Source: Phycisphaerae bacterium (lineage in GTDB: Bacteria > Planctomycetota > Phycisphaerae > UBA1845 > PWPN01). Taken from it: a stretch of DNA of 39,625 nucleotides. The position numbers and the translations under genes were made by a program. Positions 8,801 through 39,625 of this stretch are shown here, piece after piece; the stretch's first letter is position 1; every line of letters begins with the position of its first letter. Below the pieces are notes generated by a model. The model made no database searches. It saw only the letters and a program-made list of their open reading frames with translations, and was not told where the DNA came from. The stretch spans positions 1 to 39,625 of the forward strand of contig JAAXZI010000048.1 in NCBI GenBank assembly GCA_012719955.1, given 5' to 3'.

Positions 8801-9718
8801 AATCAGCGGGTCGGACACGTGCTCGATCACCGCGAAGGTCCGGGCCTTCTCCTTCTGGCCGCTCTCCGCGGCTGCCTTCTGGGCGGCCTCGACCATCTTC
8901 TGAATGCGCTGCACGGCATCGCCGATCTGGGCACCGCCCTTGACCAGCACCTCGCCGGACTCCTCGTCCACGATGTCGCTGACCACGTACATTTCCGGCT
9001 TGAGGGCGCTGGCCTTCACGTTCTTGATCTTGTCGCCGTAGAACGTGCGGATCAGGGCCTCGTTGGTCGAATAGGCCGGGTCCATGGCCCGCAGGAAAGT
9101 AGTGGCCGCAATCTTCGCCGACTGGTCGATGCGGATCGCCAGCAGGTCCTTCTTGGTGACGATGATCTCGATCCAGCTTCCGCGTTCGGGAATGATGCGG
9201 CAGGCGTGCAGGGCCCGGTCGCCCTCGGCCTGCTGCTTGATAAAGTCCACGCCCGGGGAGCGGTGAAGCTGGCTGACGATGACCCGCTCGGCCCCGTTGA
9301 TGATGAACTCGCCGCCGCCCATCATGATGGGCAGTTCGCCCAGGTAAATGCTGTCCTCGGCAATCTCGTCGCGATCCTTACGGATCAGGCGAACCTTGAT
9401 CTTGAAGGGCATGCCGTAGGTCAGTTTGAGCTGCCGGCACTCGTCCGGCGTATACCGCGGCTTGCCCAGCTCATAGGAAACGTATTCCAGGGACATGTTC
9501 CCGTCATAGCTCTCGATCGGGAACACTTCCTTGAGCAGGGCCTGCAAACCATGGTTCTCCCGCTTGTCAGGATCCACGTTGGCCTGCAGGAACCGTGCGT
9601 ACGATTCCGTCTGAATCCTGGTCAGCGGCGACTCCACCTCGCCATCACGGTCCTTGGGCAACGGAAAAACCGCTTCGCCCATCTTGCTGAAGTTCCGGAC
9701 TTCGCTCACCTTGAGCAT
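5864..9718 (-). CDS. rpoB: DNA-directed RNA polymerase subunit beta
   Basis: Second-largest RNA polymerase subunit, 1284 aa. Recognisable parts in order: the lobe segment [19 protein letters not shown] (132-150), the rifampicin-pocket region (about 468-500, [20 protein letters not shown]), the [12 protein letters not shown] segment, and [12 protein letters not shown] near the active centre. The start at 9718 has an AAGGAAAGGAAA ribosome site about eight bases upstream; Met13 is a weaker alternative. A 338-base spacer with strong hairpins separates it from rplL, as in other bacteria where L7/L12 and polymerase levels are uncoupled there. Confidence 0.98.
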
Positions 9719-34796: not shown

Positions 34797-35027
34797 GAGG
34801 GCGAGCATCTTGCCCGCCTCTGTCTTGGAGGGCGAGCATCTTGCCCGCCTTGGTCTGGGCTGGGCATCCTGTCCGCCTCAAAGGCGTGCAAGATGTACGC
34901 CCTCCGAGGCGCCCCCCCGTTCTGCCCCATGCCATCTTGTGGTAGCGGCCGGGCTCCGTACCGGCCGTTTCACCGGACAAAACGCCTGCACCTGTCTGGA
35001 TCCAGAAAGGCGGGCAGGATGCCCGCC
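34797..35027. repeat. Cluster of GGCGGGCA-type palindromes
   Basis: The 330-base gap between convergent genes (stops at 34791 and 35122) is largely repeat. It holds two tandem copies of GGCGAGCA-TCT-TGCCCGCC, a TGGGCATCCTGTCCGCC copy, an inverted-sense copy around GGCGTGCAAGATGTACGCC, and a perfect GGCGGGCA-GGA-TGCCCGCC at 35009-35027. A CGGCCGG/CCGGCCG palindrome sits between them. No gene is supported; the repeats may serve as a bidirectional terminator. Confidence 0.7.
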
Positions 35028-35094
35028 CCCCTGCATCGGCGGGACGCCGGTGCCACACGGCACGAACACCACCCCAGGCCCGTCCTCACTTCCC

Positions 35095-35146
35095 CAGTTC
35101 TCAGTTCTCAGTTCTCAGTTTTCAGTTCTCAGTTCTTGAGTTCTCA
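35095..35146. repeat. Heptamer array H4, entering a coding region
   Basis: Seven near-perfect units of CAGTTCT: three exact, one CAGTTTT, two exact, one changed. Unlike H1-H3 there is no inverted half. The array runs across the stop codon of the 1420-aa ATPase gene (35122) and supplies its last codons. Confidence 0.85.
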
Positions 35147-38100
35147 CTTCGCGACGCCAGTCGCTCTCTCACGCTCTGGAGCCACTCTGCGTCCGGCAGC
35201 GCATACGGCCGGAACTTCTCCAGCGTCCCGTGCTCCTCGCTGTAGGCCAGAGCCCGGTTCTGGCCCAGCTTGTTGGCCAGCGGCGAGTCGATGAGATTGC
35301 TCGAATCGGACGCGCTCATCTGGAACAGGATGCGGTTGTCGAACTCGCGCAGGCTGGCGCGGTCCAGCGTCCGTTCCACCGCCGCCGGCGTGTCGCACCA
35401 GGCCACCACGTGCATGCCCACCGGCGGCCCTTCGCGCAGCAGGTCCGCAAACTGCCGGTCCGGTGCGGGCTTCGCGTCCTCCTCGCGCGGTGAGAAACTG
35501 AACGAATCCTCCTGCCTGCGCAAGACCCGGTAGCGCTGCAGTCCGTAGATCAGCACATACACGGCCGGCAGGTTCAGGTCTTCGCTGGATTGCCGCTGCG
35601 CCAATTCCTCGGCCACCTCGTTGATGGCCTCCGGCACGGCCCGGTACTCCACGAGTCTCACTTCATGCGGCACAACGTCCTTCAAACGCGGGAATACTGT
35701 CGCCAGCGGCGAATCGGAAGGGCTGCCGTCCAGCACGTAGAATTTGGCCGCATCGGGCGCGTGCTGAGCGGCCAGCGAGATCAGCGACGATGCCAGCAGG
35801 GCCAGCCCCGATTCCTCCTGCTGGCCGATGATGAGCACGTTAGCCCCACTCTGCCGCCGCAGCGTCACCGCGGTCGGTTCCTTGATGGCCACCGGCTCGC
35901 CCAGCCACACCCGCGGCGCCTCGACCCGGGGGGCGGACATCTTGTCCGCCTCGTGTGGAGCAGGCATCTTGCCTGCTTCGTGTGGTGCGTGCGTCTCACC
36001 GGTGCCAGGCGGGCAAGATGCCCGCCCTCCCTTGTCCAGCAGCGCCGCCAGCAGGGAGTTCTTGCGGATATCGGCCGGCACGTTGCCTTCGAACACCACC
36101 ATTTCCGGGATTGAAATCCCTCGCTCGCGCTTCGGGCTCAAAAGCCCCTCGCGCTCGGCCTTTTCACGCACGCGCTCCAAAAACTTGTCGCGCCCCTCGT
36201 CCGGCAGCCACGACACCTGGAACGGGCTGTTGGCCTCCACCAGGCCGCTCATGTCGTTGTAGATCGCCTCGCCCGGCCGGGAGAGCAGCCGGGCCGCGGA
36301 GTTGCCGTCGCCCAGGATGACCTGCGAATCCGCCTCGGAGGTCTGCAGGGCCACGCGCACGGCCATCTGCCCGATGGTGCTGCGCGCCAGCCCCGAGGTC
36401 CCGCCGATGGTCTGCGAACCCAGCAGCAGATGGATCCCGAACGCACGGCCCTGCCGAACCAGCCGGTCCAGCAGCAAACTGGCGTCCTGGGCAATGCGGT
36501 CGTCCTCGCTGAAGAACTCCTGGAACTCGTCGATGATCAGCAGCGTCCGCGGCAGCTTCCGGCCCGAGGCCTGGCGATAACTCGCCAGATCCTGCACACC
36601 CAGCTTGCGGAACATCTCGCCGCGCCGGCCCAACTCCGCGTCCACCCGCTGGAGCACGCTGAGGCCGAATTCCCGGTCGCTCTCCACGGCCACGGCCCGC
36701 GCGTGCGGCAGCCGGTGCGTCGCATAGGCCTTGAACTCCACGCCCTTCTTGAAGTCCACTAAATAGAACTCCACCTCCTCGGGCGAATACCACAGCGCCA
36801 GGTTGGTAATCAGCACGTGCAGCAGGGTGGACTTACCCGAGCCGGTCTTGCCGGCGATCAGGCCGTGCTGGGCCACGCCGCGTCCCAGCCGCAACATCTG
36901 CAACCGGCTGGCCCCCATCCGTCCGATGGGCACTTCCACGTCGTTGTCCGTGCTGCGCGACCACATCCGGTCGTCGGTCGGCGCGATGCTCTCAAACGGC
37001 ACCTCCACGCGCTTGGACTCACGCGCCTCGCGCCCGATCACGTGCAGCGTCCGCGTCAGGAACTCCTCGGAGGGCGGTGGGTCCACCATCAGCGGGAACC
37101 GCTTGAACACCTCGTCCTCCCAGACGAACCGGTCTTTCTGGTGCACCAGACTCACGCTGCTGGCCGCCAGTTCCTCCGGCGGCACCCCCGGCGGCAGCGG
37201 CTGCCGCGTGTCCCGCGCGATCAGCGTGTACACCCCGCAGCGCGCCCCGGTGCCGATGATCGAGGCCAGCCGGCGCAGCGCGTCTTCGCTGAATCCCAGC
37301 GGAAAATCGGCGATGACCAGGAACCGGTACGGCTCGGCCAGCTCGCCGGCCTGGGCGTTGTAGGCGTCGATGGTGGGGAACTCGTTGCGCAAATACTTCT
37401 GGATGACCGTCTCCATGTGCTCGGTCAGGTCCGCCAGCCGTCGCTCGATGTGGTCGCTTTCCGTCCAGATGCGGTTGCCCACCAGGGACTCGTCGTAATC
37501 CGCCAGGTGCATAAAACCGGCGAAGTTCTGCCCCAACCCCACGGGATCGATGATCGTGAACCGCACCCGCCCGGCCGGCAACGACACCAGCAGCCGCATC
37601 ATCACCATCCGCAGCACGCGAATGGCCTCCGCCCGGCCGGTATGGTCCGAGGCCACCAGCAGCGAGGCCTGCTTCGGGAACGCCAACAGAGCCGGCACCG
37701 CGAACTCCTCGGGCAAGGCCAGCGACCCGGGCACGCGCTCGGTGATCTGCTTGAGATCGACCTTCATCTCGCCGAAACGAACCACCGACGTGAACTGCCG
37801 CGGCGGCTTCCAGCCCTGCCACTCGGGCGATTCCCAGTCCAGCGGCGCCTGCCCGAGGCCACGCTGCCGGCCGTCGATAGGCTCCTGGATCTGGGCCAGC
37901 CCGGTTCGCCAGCGCTGCTCGAGTTCCCGCCGACCGGCCTCGTAGTCGTTGCGGATCCGGACCAGGGCCTGCTCGTGCCGTTCGCGCGCTTCGCGCTGCT
38001 CGCGCTGATGGCGCTCCTCGACCTCGGCCAGCATGGCCGCCCGCCAGCGCTCGGCCTCGCCAAGACTCGCCTCCCGCTGGGCCTCTATCTTCGCCAGCAG

Positions 38101-39384
38101 CCGCTCGCGCTCTGCTTGCTGGCCTTTCAGAAACTCTTCCTGCTCGCGCACGGCCTTGGCCAGCAGCGGACCGAAACGAGTCTTGGCCTCCTGTACCTCG
38201 TGGTCGCGCTTCTTATAGGCCTCGGCCAGCCGCCGTTGCCGGGCCCACTGGCCGTGGGCAAACTCGGCCTGGGCCGACCGTGCCGCCCGCTCGATGGCCT
38301 CACGCAGCCCATCGGCGGCCCGCCGCACCTGGGTCCGGGCCACGGAACGGAGCCCCACGCCCGCCGCCAACATCGCCACCAGCCCCACCCCTGCGCCAAT
38401 GGCTATTTCCTTCACGTGCGGCGCGTCCAGGCCAGCCAGAAGCTGGGCCACCCCCGCTCCCGCCAGCATAGCCAGCAGGATGAGCACAAAAGGCGCCACC
38501 CCCACGAACAACCGGGGAAATCGCAATCCCGCGGTCGCCTCCAGCCGGGCGCCGGCCTCCTCGTATAACGCATCGAAAGGCGCCTCCGGCCGTCGCGGCT
38601 CGGCCGCATCCGAAGCAAGGGCCGCCAGTTTGTCGGCCATGGAGAAAGCGCCTGTTCCTCCACTCTTCAGGCGCGAGGACTGACGCGACGGGGAAGCCTG
38701 CTCCTGGTCCGGAGCGGGATCGACGTCAACGTCCACCGCATCCTCGTCGTCCTCCACCTCGGAATGCAAAGGCCCTTCCAGCCCGGGGACGGCCTCGTCC
38801 TCCTCCTCGATGTCCTCTTCATCTATCCACTCCACCGGCGTCCATTCCTGCCGGAGGGTGAACATCAGCACTTCCGCCTGTCCTTCCAACTGCTCGATGA
38901 GTTGTCGGCGGTTGGCGAGTTCCTCCTTGGCCTTCCGGGCCTCCTCGCGGGTCTGTTCCTGAACCCCCTCCAGGACCGTCTCGGCCAGCCAGGCGGCATG
39001 GGTGTATTTCTTCTTGATCTCGCCTTCCGCAGTGGCGTGCTCCTGGTTGAGTTCCAGGCGCTTGGCCTCCTGGGCGGCGTCCAGCCTGGCCCGGTCCGAC
39101 TCATAAGTGGCCGCGATCTTCTGCAGAAACTCCTCGTACTGGCACGCAATCGCCTCGCGCTCGGCCTGGTATCGCGTTCCGGCGTCCTCCAGGTCTTTCC
39201 TGAGCTGGGCCTCGACCCGCTCCTGTTCAGTTTGCCTCCGGCGTTCCAGGGTCTCTTCGGTGTCGGCGCACTCGGTGGACAGCAGCACCAGGTCATGCAG
39301 CGCTTCGCGCTGAAGATCTCGCGCCGTGCTCGTCTCCTCGGGGTTGTTCACGGATCGTGGATTCACAGGAGGTGCATCTGACAT
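35122..39384 (-). CDS. Membrane-anchored coiled-coil FtsK/SpoIIIE (EccC-like) ATPase
   Basis: A 1420-aa protein. Residues about 20-175 are charged coiled coil, then an acidic stretch (187-230), two membrane segments (about 292-315 and 326-346), a second coiled coil (350-500) and three FtsK-like modules. Module 1 (about 560-730) lacks a Walker A. Module 2 has GKTGSGKS at 845-852, Walker B LLIIDEF (Asp952, Glu953) and LLGSQTIGG. Module 3 (about 1158-1400) again lacks a P-loop. Tandem FtsK modules are the plan of type VII secretion motors, though there the first module is usually the active one. The ATG at 39384 follows the 70-aa gene by four bases. Repeats lie at 1118-1155 and in the last eight residues. 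DNA pumping is the alternative. Confidence 0.85.
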   Translation of the reverse strand: MSDAPPVNPRSVNNPEETSTARDLQREALHDLVLLSTECADTEETLERRRQTEQERVEAQLRKDLEDAGTRYQAEREAIACQYEEFLQKIAATYESDRARLDAAQEAKRLELNQEHATAEGEIKKKYTHAAWLAETVLEGVQEQTREEARKAKEELANRRQLIEQLEGQAEVLMFTLRQEWTPVEWIDEEDIEEEDEAVPGLEGPLHSEVEDDEDAVDVDVDPAPDQEQASPSRQSSRLKSGGTGAFSMADKLAALASDAAEPRRPEAPFDALYEEAGARLEATAGLRFPRLFVGVAPFVLILLAMLAGAGVAQLLAGLDAPHVKEIAIGAGVGLVAMLAAGVGLRSVARTQVRRAADGLREAIERAARSAQAEFAHGQWARQRRLAEAYKKRDHEVQEAKTRFGPLLAKAVREQEEFLKGQQAERERLLAKIEAQREASLGEAERWRAAMLAEVEERHQREQREARERHEQALVRIRNDYEAGRRELEQRWRTGLAQIQEPIDGRQRGLGQAPLDWESPEWQGWKPPRQFTSVVRFGEMKVDLKQITERVPGSLALPEEFAVPALLAFPKQASLLVASDHTGRAEAIRVLRMVMMRLLVSLPAGRVRFTIIDPVGLGQNFAGFMHLADYDESLVGNRIWTESDHIERRLADLTEHMETVIQKYLRNEFPTIDAYNAQAGELAEPYRFLVIADFPLGFSEDALRRLASIIGTGARCGVYTLIARDTRQPLPPGVPPEELAASSVSLVHQKDRFVWEDEVFKRFPLMVDPPPSEEFLTRTLHVIGREARESKRVEVPFESIAPTDDRMWSRSTDNDVEVPIGRMGASRLQMLRLGRGVAQHGLIAGKTGSGKSTLLHVLITNLALWYSPEEVEFYLVDFKKGVEFKAYATHRLPHARAVAVESDREFGLSVLQRVDAELGRRGEMFRKLGVQDLASYRQASGRKLPRTLLIIDEFQEFFSEDDRIAQDASLLLDRLVRQGRAFGIHLLLGSQTIGGTSGLARSTIGQMAVRVALQTSEADSQVILGDGNSAARLLSRPGEAIYNDMSGLVEANSPFQVSWLPDEGRDKFLERVREKAEREGLLSPKRERGISIPEMVVFEGNVPADIRKNSLLAALLDKGGRASCPPGTGETHAPHEAGKMPAPHEADKMSAPRVEAPRVWLGEPVAIKEPTAVTLRRQSGANVLIIGQQEESGLALLASSLISLAAQHAPDAAKFYVLDGSPSDSPLATVFPRLKDVVPHEVRLVEYRAVPEAINEVAEELAQRQSSEDLNLPAVYVLIYGLQRYRVLRRQEDSFSFSPREEDAKPAPDRQFADLLREGPPVGMHVVAWCDTPAAVERTLDRASLREFDNRILFQMSASDSSNLIDSPLANKLGQNRALAYSEEHGTLEKFRPYALPDAEWLQSVRERLASRSENSRTEN
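35932..36026. repeat. Three palindromes inserted in frame in the ATPase gene
   Basis: GGCGGACA-TCT-TGTCCGCC (35932-35950), AGCAGGCA-TCT-TGCCTGCT (35959-35977) and GGCGGGCA-AGA-TGCCCGCC (36008-36026) lie within codons about 1118-1155. Translated, they give GGRASCPP, AGKMPAP and ADKMSAP in the linker between ATPase modules 2 and 3, leaving the reading frame open. Confidence 0.85.
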
Positions 39385-39388
39385 GCGT

Positions 39389-39601
39389 CTACTCGCAATC
39401 TCGCCGGATCTTTTCCAACAGGGCCGCCATGTGGGACATCGCGCTGGAAGCGTTGCGCAGATCATTCTGCAGCGGGATCAGGTACTTCTCCTCGAACTCG
39501 CGGGCCTGGGCGTCATCCCAGGTCATCCGCGTCTCCTCCCACTGGATGAGAAGCTGCCGCAAGGCCTTTGAAAGTTGTCCCCCGCCCTCATAAACGCCCA
39601 T
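39389..39601 (-). CDS. Small helical protein, WXG100-like
   Basis: A 70-aa protein, complete, with GAGGAGG six bases before the ATG at 39601. A short first helix (LSKALRQLLIQWEETRM) leads to a Trp-Asp-Asp turn, then a long amphipathic helix (DAQAREFEEKYLIPLQNDLR and onward). This resembles the second half of WXG100 proteins, where W-x-G separates two helices and a Phe follows about eight residues later; here WDD replaces WxG and the first helix is shorter. It ends four bases before the FtsK/EccC-like ATPase start, so the two are cotranscribed. It could be a substrate, chaperone or coupling subunit of that ATPase. No export tail YxxxD/E is present. Confidence 0.7.
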   Translation of the reverse strand: MGVYEGGGQLSKALRQLLIQWEETRMTWDDAQAREFEEKYLIPLQNDLRNASSAMSHMAALLEKIRRDCE

Positions 39602-39625
39602 GCGATCCCTCCTCTCCCGTTACCC

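What the first reader, a model, noticed from the sequence alone, without database searches (positions are those of the whole stretch)
35122..39601. Candidate type VII-like machine: WXG-like small protein plus coiled-coil triple-module ATPase
A 70-aa helical protein with a W-D-D turn is coupled by four bases to an ATPase with two long coiled coils, a membrane hairpin and three FtsK-type modules. In known type VII motors the first module is active and FHA or ubiquitin-like parts are present; here only the middle module has a P-loop and the coiled coils replace those domains. The pair may be a distinct export or contact-dependent system of planctomycetes. Further genes probably lie right of the window.
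Basis: partly seen in the sequence, partly recalled or inferred. Interest (0 to 1): 0.72.

Follow-up and report, generated by a model that had tools for sequence, protein, structure and literature searches.

The report
Planctomycete minimal type VII-like export machine
The two genes are the last two of a conserved four-gene set that looks like a stripped-down, membrane-anchored relative of the type VII protein-export machine; the general kind was noted in 2012, but its four parts, membrane anchor and tight co-retention in planctomycetes had not been worked out in the papers I could find.

Summary
The 70-mer models as a helical hairpin (pLDDT 92) whose five best structural matches are all Esx/WXG100 proteins, with W-x-D at the turn. 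The ATPase has a TM hairpin and three RecA-like modules, with a P-loop only in the middle one (87/87 relatives). The contig ends 24 nt upstream; relatives show two missing genes, so the unit is A-B-C-D: A, a true WXG100 protein (best solved relative H. pylori HP0062); B, a helical protein with a variable C-terminus; C, the 70-mer; D, the EccC-like ATPase. All four occur in 68 of 70 loci with room. D and WXG100 co-occur across 392 Planctomycetota genomes (57 both, 327 neither). Some genomes scatter the genes yet keep one copy of each. Plasmid relatives in other phyla can carry a nuclease toxin at B's position. Best reading: a minimal type VII-like export module. The kind is not new: a 2012 footnote and a 2024 paper describe WXG100 plus an EssC-like ATPase with only the middle module active. 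New here: four-part anatomy, W-x-D in both hairpins, the membrane hairpin, a B without recognised toxin, and a register suggesting the active module equals EccC ATPase1. Export is inferred, not shown.

The parts
39389..39601 (-). Gene C: 70-aa WXG-like helical hairpin, W28-D29-D30 at the turn
   Evidence: W-x-D in 89/89; hairpin model; top five Foldseek matches all EsxA/EsxB
35122..39384 (-). Gene D: 1420-aa EccC/EssC-like FtsK-family ATPase (longest ORF from 39465)
38785..39297 (-). D residues about 30-200: first long charged helical (coiled-coil-like) region
   Evidence: read from sequence and alignment; no coiled-coil predictor run
38350..38511 (-). D residues about 292-345: membrane hairpin (two hydrophobic segments)
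37885..38247 (-). D residues about 380-500: second long charged helical region
   Evidence: read from sequence and alignment
37015..37785 (-). D module 1: RecA-like, no P-loop; used as the diagnostic of the family; perhaps equivalent to the EccC DUF domain
36247..36939 (-). D module 2: active FtsK-type module; best match is EccC ATPase1
36829..36852 (-). P-loop GKTGSGKS, the only Walker A in the protein
   Evidence: one per protein in 87/87
35197..35913 (-). D module 3: RecA-like, no P-loop; best match is EccC ATPase2
39602..39625 (-). Contig end: genes A (90-aa WXG100) and B (helical, 185-393 aa) expected upstream are most likely absent only because the assembly stops

Best explanation
A four-protein, membrane-anchored, minimal type VII-like export module. 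A (WXG100 hairpin) and C (shorter WXG-like hairpin, the 70-mer) act as paired targeting proteins that hold or present B, a helical cargo or adaptor with a variable C-terminal part. D, an EccC-like ATPase held in the inner membrane by a TM hairpin between two long helical stalks, forms a hexamer and uses its one active module to drive the complex across the membrane. Shown: gene set, homologies, hairpin fold (model), single P-loop, co-occurrence even when unlinked, membrane segments (hydropathy). Inferred: A-C pairing, B as cargo, hexamer, export, direction. In relatives of other phyla the B position can hold a toxin; in planctomycetes no toxin was recognised, so a non-toxic cargo is likely.
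For: A is Pfam WXG100 in 15/15 members, best 2.9e-11; best solved relative HP0062 3fx7, 3.9e-11, then EsxB/EsxA. A and C are related: the C profile finds A proteins down to 1.1e-5, 40/81 below 0.01, none reversed. C is a hairpin like Esx. D is closest to EccC: 4nh0 1.1e-41, HH 8.8e-38, Foldseek 4.7e-28. A-B-C-D in 68 of 70 loci with room with no conserved outer neighbour. D and WXG100: 57 both, 3 D only, 5 WXG only (weak), 327 neither, p 9e-59 (genomes are related, so p is only indicative). All four kept when scattered: G165 at four chromosome sites. Plasmid relatives: A homologs (5e-24 to 7e-10) beside effector-like genes, e.g. WHH/colicin nuclease plus SUKH immunity in Helicobacter.
Against: No export shown. 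YukD and EssB were not found in 12 genomes that carry D. The YxxxD/E export motif is absent from A (0/81) and all but absent from C ([YF]xxxD/E in 2/89). Planctomycete B has no recognised toxin, and 7/16 carry an Imm33-like domain instead, which does not look like an exported weapon. No outer-membrane component was found.
Confidence: 0.6

Rival explanations
1. A defence or stress module: D and the WXG proteins act inside the cell, as the related operons next to TerY-P and McrBC-like (CoCoNuT) systems may, with D moving protein or nucleic acid and B or its relatives acting as a nuclease on phage or own DNA.
For: Relatives sit beside TerD (L197), vWA, PP2C, Ser/Thr kinase and CARF genes (L199) and Hsp70/GrpE (L200). 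PMC11090510 and PMC4978471 describe such associations. PADLOC matches the P-loop module to SspH, 1.6e-27, though over that module only.
Against: No defence gene recurs next to the planctomycete unit; D has membrane segments; B lacks a recognised nuclease; the four genes are single-copy and kept without island-like neighbours.
Confidence: 0.2
2. An envelope or cell-organisation machine of Planctomycetota: D is a membrane-anchored coiled-coil motor that organises the envelope or internal membranes, with A, B and C as structural adaptors rather than cargo.
For: Long helical stalks on both sides of a membrane hairpin, single-copy retention of all parts even when scattered, no toxin repertoire.
Against: Patchy: D in 60 of 392 genomes; homologs on plasmids with toxin and immunity genes point to cargo delivery.
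Confidence: 0.12
3. A regular T7SSa or T7SSb whose other core genes lie elsewhere in the genome.
For: EccC-like ATPase plus WXG100 protein are the two shared hallmarks.
Against: YukD and EssB not found in 12 D-positive genomes while the B. subtilis control rang; three modules, not four NTPase domains; W-x-D, not W-x-G.
Confidence: 0.03

Closest known systems
'Mobile T7SS': solo WXG plus YueA-like ATPase with three FtsK/HerA domains, only the middle active (Zhang et al. 2012, PMC3482391 Table 1 note 6; planctomycetes named there)
   Same: ATPase layout, solo WXG100, phylum
   Different: The footnote gives no B, C, membrane hairpin or co-retention data; here single-copy, sometimes scattered, with no clear sign of mobility
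EssC-like ATPase with WXG100 pair in extended Type III-A CoCoNuT loci (PMC11090510)
   Same: Three modules, only the central predicted active; long N-terminal coiled coil; two WXG100-like proteins; a coiled-coil fusion protein in the same region
   Different: That ATPase has no TM segments and its operon sits in a McrBC/TerY-P locus with a nuclease fusion; the planctomycete ATPase has a TM hairpin and no such neighbours
Helicobacter WXG100 secretion cluster (HP0062/HP0066, PMC4978471, PMC3397514)
   Same: HP0062 is the closest solved relative of A and also has W-R-D at the turn; FtsK-type partner
   Different: No function proven there; the Helicobacter plasmid relative (L201) has a nuclease and SUKH immunity gene, and a shorter D without an N-terminal TM hairpin
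T7SSb LXG effector with Lap1 and Lap2 targeting proteins (PMC9600955)
   Same: A larger helical protein encoded with two small WXG-like hairpins
   Different: B shows no LXG domain or toxin by Pfam; the FxxxD motif of Lap1 is not conserved; the T7SSb partners YukD and EssB are missing
EccC/EssC of T7SSa-j (PMC11217815)
   Same: ATPase homology over 733 aligned columns, membrane anchor, WXG100 partner
   Different: Three modules, one P-loop, helical stalks instead of FHA or UBL; that survey covers Actinomycetota and Bacillota only

Membership tests
WXG100 superfamily (gene A) | Matches PF06013 | tested here: met
   15/15 members, first member 39.3 bits against cut-off 27.3; HP0062, EsxB and EsxA are the best solved relatives
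WXG100 superfamily (gene C, the 70-mer) | Profile match and helical hairpin with W-x-G-like turn | tested here: inconclusive
   Hairpin met; Esx proteins top the fold list but with E above 1; Pfam WXG100 only weakly, 3/17; related to A; turn is W-x-D in 89/89
Type VII secretion system a/b | EccC/EssC-type ATPase | tested here: met
   Homologous by sequence, profile and fold, though far below the EccCa model cut-off (129 of 509 bits)
Type VII secretion system a/b | Ubiquitin-like YukD/EsaB | tested here: not met
   0 of 12 D-positive genomes; control rings in B. subtilis; an EccD-fused form was not searched for separately
Type VII secretion system b | EssB/YukC | tested here: not met
   0 of 12 over cut-off; control rings
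Type VII secretion system a | EccB | tested here: inconclusive
   0 of 12, but no control genome rang
Type VII secretion system a/b | Four NTPase domains in the ATPase | tested here: not met
   Three modules in the model and in alignment A4
Type VII secretion system a/b | YxxxD/E export motif | tested here: not met
   0/81 in A; [YF]xxxD/E in 2/89 of C; A instead ends in a conserved YL tail, e.g. EYLQQR (80/81)
Type VII secretion system a/b | ATPase-dependent export of WXG100 protein | not testable with these tools
   Needs bench work
Mobile T7SS of Zhang et al. 2012 | WXG plus ATPase with three modules, only the middle active | tested here: met
   (one P-loop, middle module, 87/87)
Mobile T7SS of Zhang et al. 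2012 | Mobile | tested here: inconclusive
   Plasmid-borne in other phyla; in planctomycetes single copy per genome, no recurrent mobility gene nearby, one supported clade
CoCoNuT-associated EssC-like ATPase | N-terminal helical stalk and no TM segment | tested here: not met
   Stalk seen, but TM segment(s) found N-terminal of module 1 in 87/87
LXG effector with Lap1/Lap2 | LXG domain and toxin domain in the large partner | tested here: not met
   No LXG or toxin family in 16 B proteins by Pfam

The most novel reading that the evidence does not exclude
Planctomycetota carry a fixed, non-mobile, membrane-anchored branch of the WXG100/EssC-like family that exports, or positions in the envelope, a non-toxic cargo (B). 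It would be a diderm type VII-like machine tamed for a cell-biological role, with four parts under selection to stay together even when their genes are scattered over the chromosome.
Probability: 0.35. Interest if true: 0.72.

Novelty: new variant of a known kind. Interest (0 to 1): 0.5.

Why it matters
Type VII secretion is studied almost only in Actinomycetota and Bacillota. A compact four-gene relative kept in many Planctomycetota, with all parts named and a cultured host available (Singulisphaera acidiphila DSM 18658, L108, carries all four), makes it possible to test what the smallest working type VII-like motor is, whether it exports protein in a diderm cell, and how the hairpin pair recognises cargo without the usual YxxxD/E signal.

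Tried and rejected
Plain DNA translocase FtsK: rejected; EccC scores far above FtsK by sequence (146 against 43 bits) and fold. Regular T7SS with distant partners: YukD and EssB not found. Extra WXG100-domain toxins in planctomycete genomes: none seen; PF06013 hits are essentially one per D-positive genome. Extra copies of B or C that could be polymorphic effectors: none convincing, one copy each. A fifth conserved gene in the flanks: none. Module 1 against solved structures: nothing significant. Weak C-to-solved match (EsxA, E 0.033) is support, not proof. B against solved structures: nothing. Global Foldseek alignment of D to EccC does not by itself fix the module register; the profile alignment prefers the shifted one, and this stays open. 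A test of other phyla in genome contigs was limited: 468 loci matched, only the best 80 were returned, all Planctomycetota.

Full report
WHAT IS THERE. The window is a whole contig of a 5.29-Mb planctomycete assembly (93.7% complete). At its right end, on the minus strand, lie a 70-aa ORF (39389-39601) and a large ATPase ORF ending at 35122. The ATPase most likely starts at ATG 39384, four bases after the 70-mer stop. The contig ends 24 nt upstream of the 70-mer, so nothing further can be read in the window itself.

THE MISSING GENES. The 70-mer is found in 17 of 61 genomes searched, this one included. In 20-kb stretches around the hits the same order recurs on one strand: A (90 aa), B (185-393 aa as read), C (the 70-mer), D (about 1320 aa). 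In a separate collection, a search with D module 1 gave 468 loci, the best 80 all Planctomycetota (some are the same genomes as before). Of these 80, I count 68 with all four genes, 10 cut by a contig end, and two true exceptions: L084 with none of A, B, C within 8.6 kb, and L104 with no A. No flanking gene recurs beyond common planctomycete families, so A-B-C-D is the unit.

WHAT THE PROTEINS ARE. A is a WXG100 protein by Pfam in 15/15 members. Its best solved relative is Helicobacter HP0062 (3fx7, E 3.9e-11), followed by EsxB and EsxA. C matches Pfam only weakly, but it models as a hairpin (pLDDT 92, helices 3-27 and 31-69). The five best of 37 Foldseek matches are EsxA and EsxB, though E-values are above 1, as expected for a short hairpin. 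Profiles of A and C find each other, and reversed sequences do not. The turn is W-x-D in 81/81 A and 89/89 C. B is helical by its sequence. In 7/16 it carries an Imm33-like C-terminal domain; otherwise it ends in a variable tail. No toxin family was seen.

THE MOTOR. D matches EccC best among solved structures (4nh0, 1.1e-41; FtsK 1.1e-10). Its three C-terminal modules are RecA-like in a model, and the best Foldseek match is EccC (4.7e-28). All 87 relatives have exactly one Walker A motif, in the middle module. One or two hydrophobic segments lie N-terminal of module 1 in all 87. Four of the five distant plasmid homologs (823-947 aa) showed no such N-terminal segment; the fifth showed one marginal segment at its very start.

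MODULE REGISTER. Against an alignment of eight EccC/EssC proteins from plasmids, the whole three-module profile aligns best as module 1 to DUF, module 2 to ATPase1, module 3 to ATPase2 (score 327, E 9e-38). The register 1-2-3 scores 233. Modules 2 and 3 prefer the shifted register on their own; module 1 alone prefers neither convincingly. If right, the active module is the same one as in EccC, and what is lost is ATPase3. I give this about 0.7.

CO-OCCURRENCE. In 392 Planctomycetota genomes, D module 1 is found in 60 and PF06013 in 62. By my count from the two lists, 57 have both, 3 D only (one is this genome, cut by the contig end), 5 WXG only with weak hits, 327 neither (Fisher p 9e-59; genomes are not independent). 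All 52 above-cut-off WXG100 genomes are D-positive. In several genomes the genes are unlinked: G165 has A, B, C and D at four chromosome sites, G084 at three, G212 and G367 have ABC apart from D, G276 has AB apart from CD. Each of B and C is present once. This argues for one shared function better than operon order does.

RELATIVES ELSEWHERE. A search of plasmids with the D modules found homologs at 28-33% identity. Their neighbourhoods hold A-like genes in Caballeronia (5e-24), Helicobacter (6e-16), Rhodococcus (4e-15) and Deinococcus (7e-10) (E-values for a set of a few dozen proteins). In the Helicobacter plasmid the B position holds a protein with a C-terminal WHH/colicin-like nuclease (1e-11 and 1e-8) followed by a SUKH immunity protein. 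In Caballeronia the B-position protein has what reads like a restriction-endonuclease-type C-terminus, but Pfam found nothing. Weak profile matches link planctomycete B to the Rhodococcus protein (1.4e-4 with Z 10,000). So the B position is probably the cargo position. A tree of the active module puts the planctomycete proteins in one supported clade inside this wider family, apart from EccC; long branches make deeper joins unsure.

HOW IT WORKS. Best reading (0.6): A and C are hairpin targeting proteins for B, and D, anchored by its TM hairpin, drives export with one active module. The nearest worked example for two hairpins plus a larger partner is LXG effectors with Lap1 and Lap2 (PMC9600955). 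Not shown: binding, export, direction, outer-membrane passage. Absence of YukD and EssB and of the YxxxD/E motif says it is not a regular T7SS, without arguing against working like one.

NOVELTY. Zhang et al. 2012 (PMC3482391) state in a table note that some proteobacteria, planctomycetes and other lineages have solo WXG domains with a three-domain ATPase of which only the middle is active, and call these mobile versions of T7SS. The CoCoNuT paper (PMC11090510) describes the same ATPase layout with an N-terminal coiled coil, no TM segments, and two WXG100 proteins. HP0062 and its W-R-D turn are described in PMC3397514. I therefore rate this a new variant of a known kind. Literature searches for planctomycete WXG100 or type VII systems found nothing else relevant, but only open-licence papers are held.

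LIMITS. Genes in relatives were called with my own simple caller; B starts are uncertain. Coiled coils were judged from sequence. The survey gives presence in the phylum, not a census of other phyla.

Noticed in passing
window 34800-36026, also 30981: A palindromic 19-mer (GGCGGGCANGATGCCCGCC, 14 hits against 0.22 expected) clusters downstream of and inside the ATPase gene. Two copies (35932, 36008) fall in a stretch encoding about 40 extra residues between modules 2 and 3 that most relatives lack.
   Followed up: partly
window 35095-35150: A 7-bp tandem repeat (CAGTTCT, about 8 copies) runs over the ATPase stop codon and encodes its last residues.
   Followed up: no
L191 (genome G167): A is followed directly by a shorter D (1006 aa), with no B or C detected; a possible reduced form.
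   Followed up: partly
L084: D without A, B or C within 8.6 kb upstream; perhaps a split arrangement as in other genomes.
   Followed up: no
L197, L198, L199 (plasmids) and planctomycete B: B-position proteins of four phyla share a short motif (planctomycete SCVDEEKALA, Caballeronia GCSSEESDVADA, Rhodococcus DCSVERRQVNRA, Deinococcus SCSSESNNVFTA), seen by eye.
   Followed up: partly
L198 (Deinococcus plasmid), 9249-9677: A separate 142-aa helical protein with one TM segment precedes a D without TM; it might supply the membrane anchor in trans.
   Followed up: no
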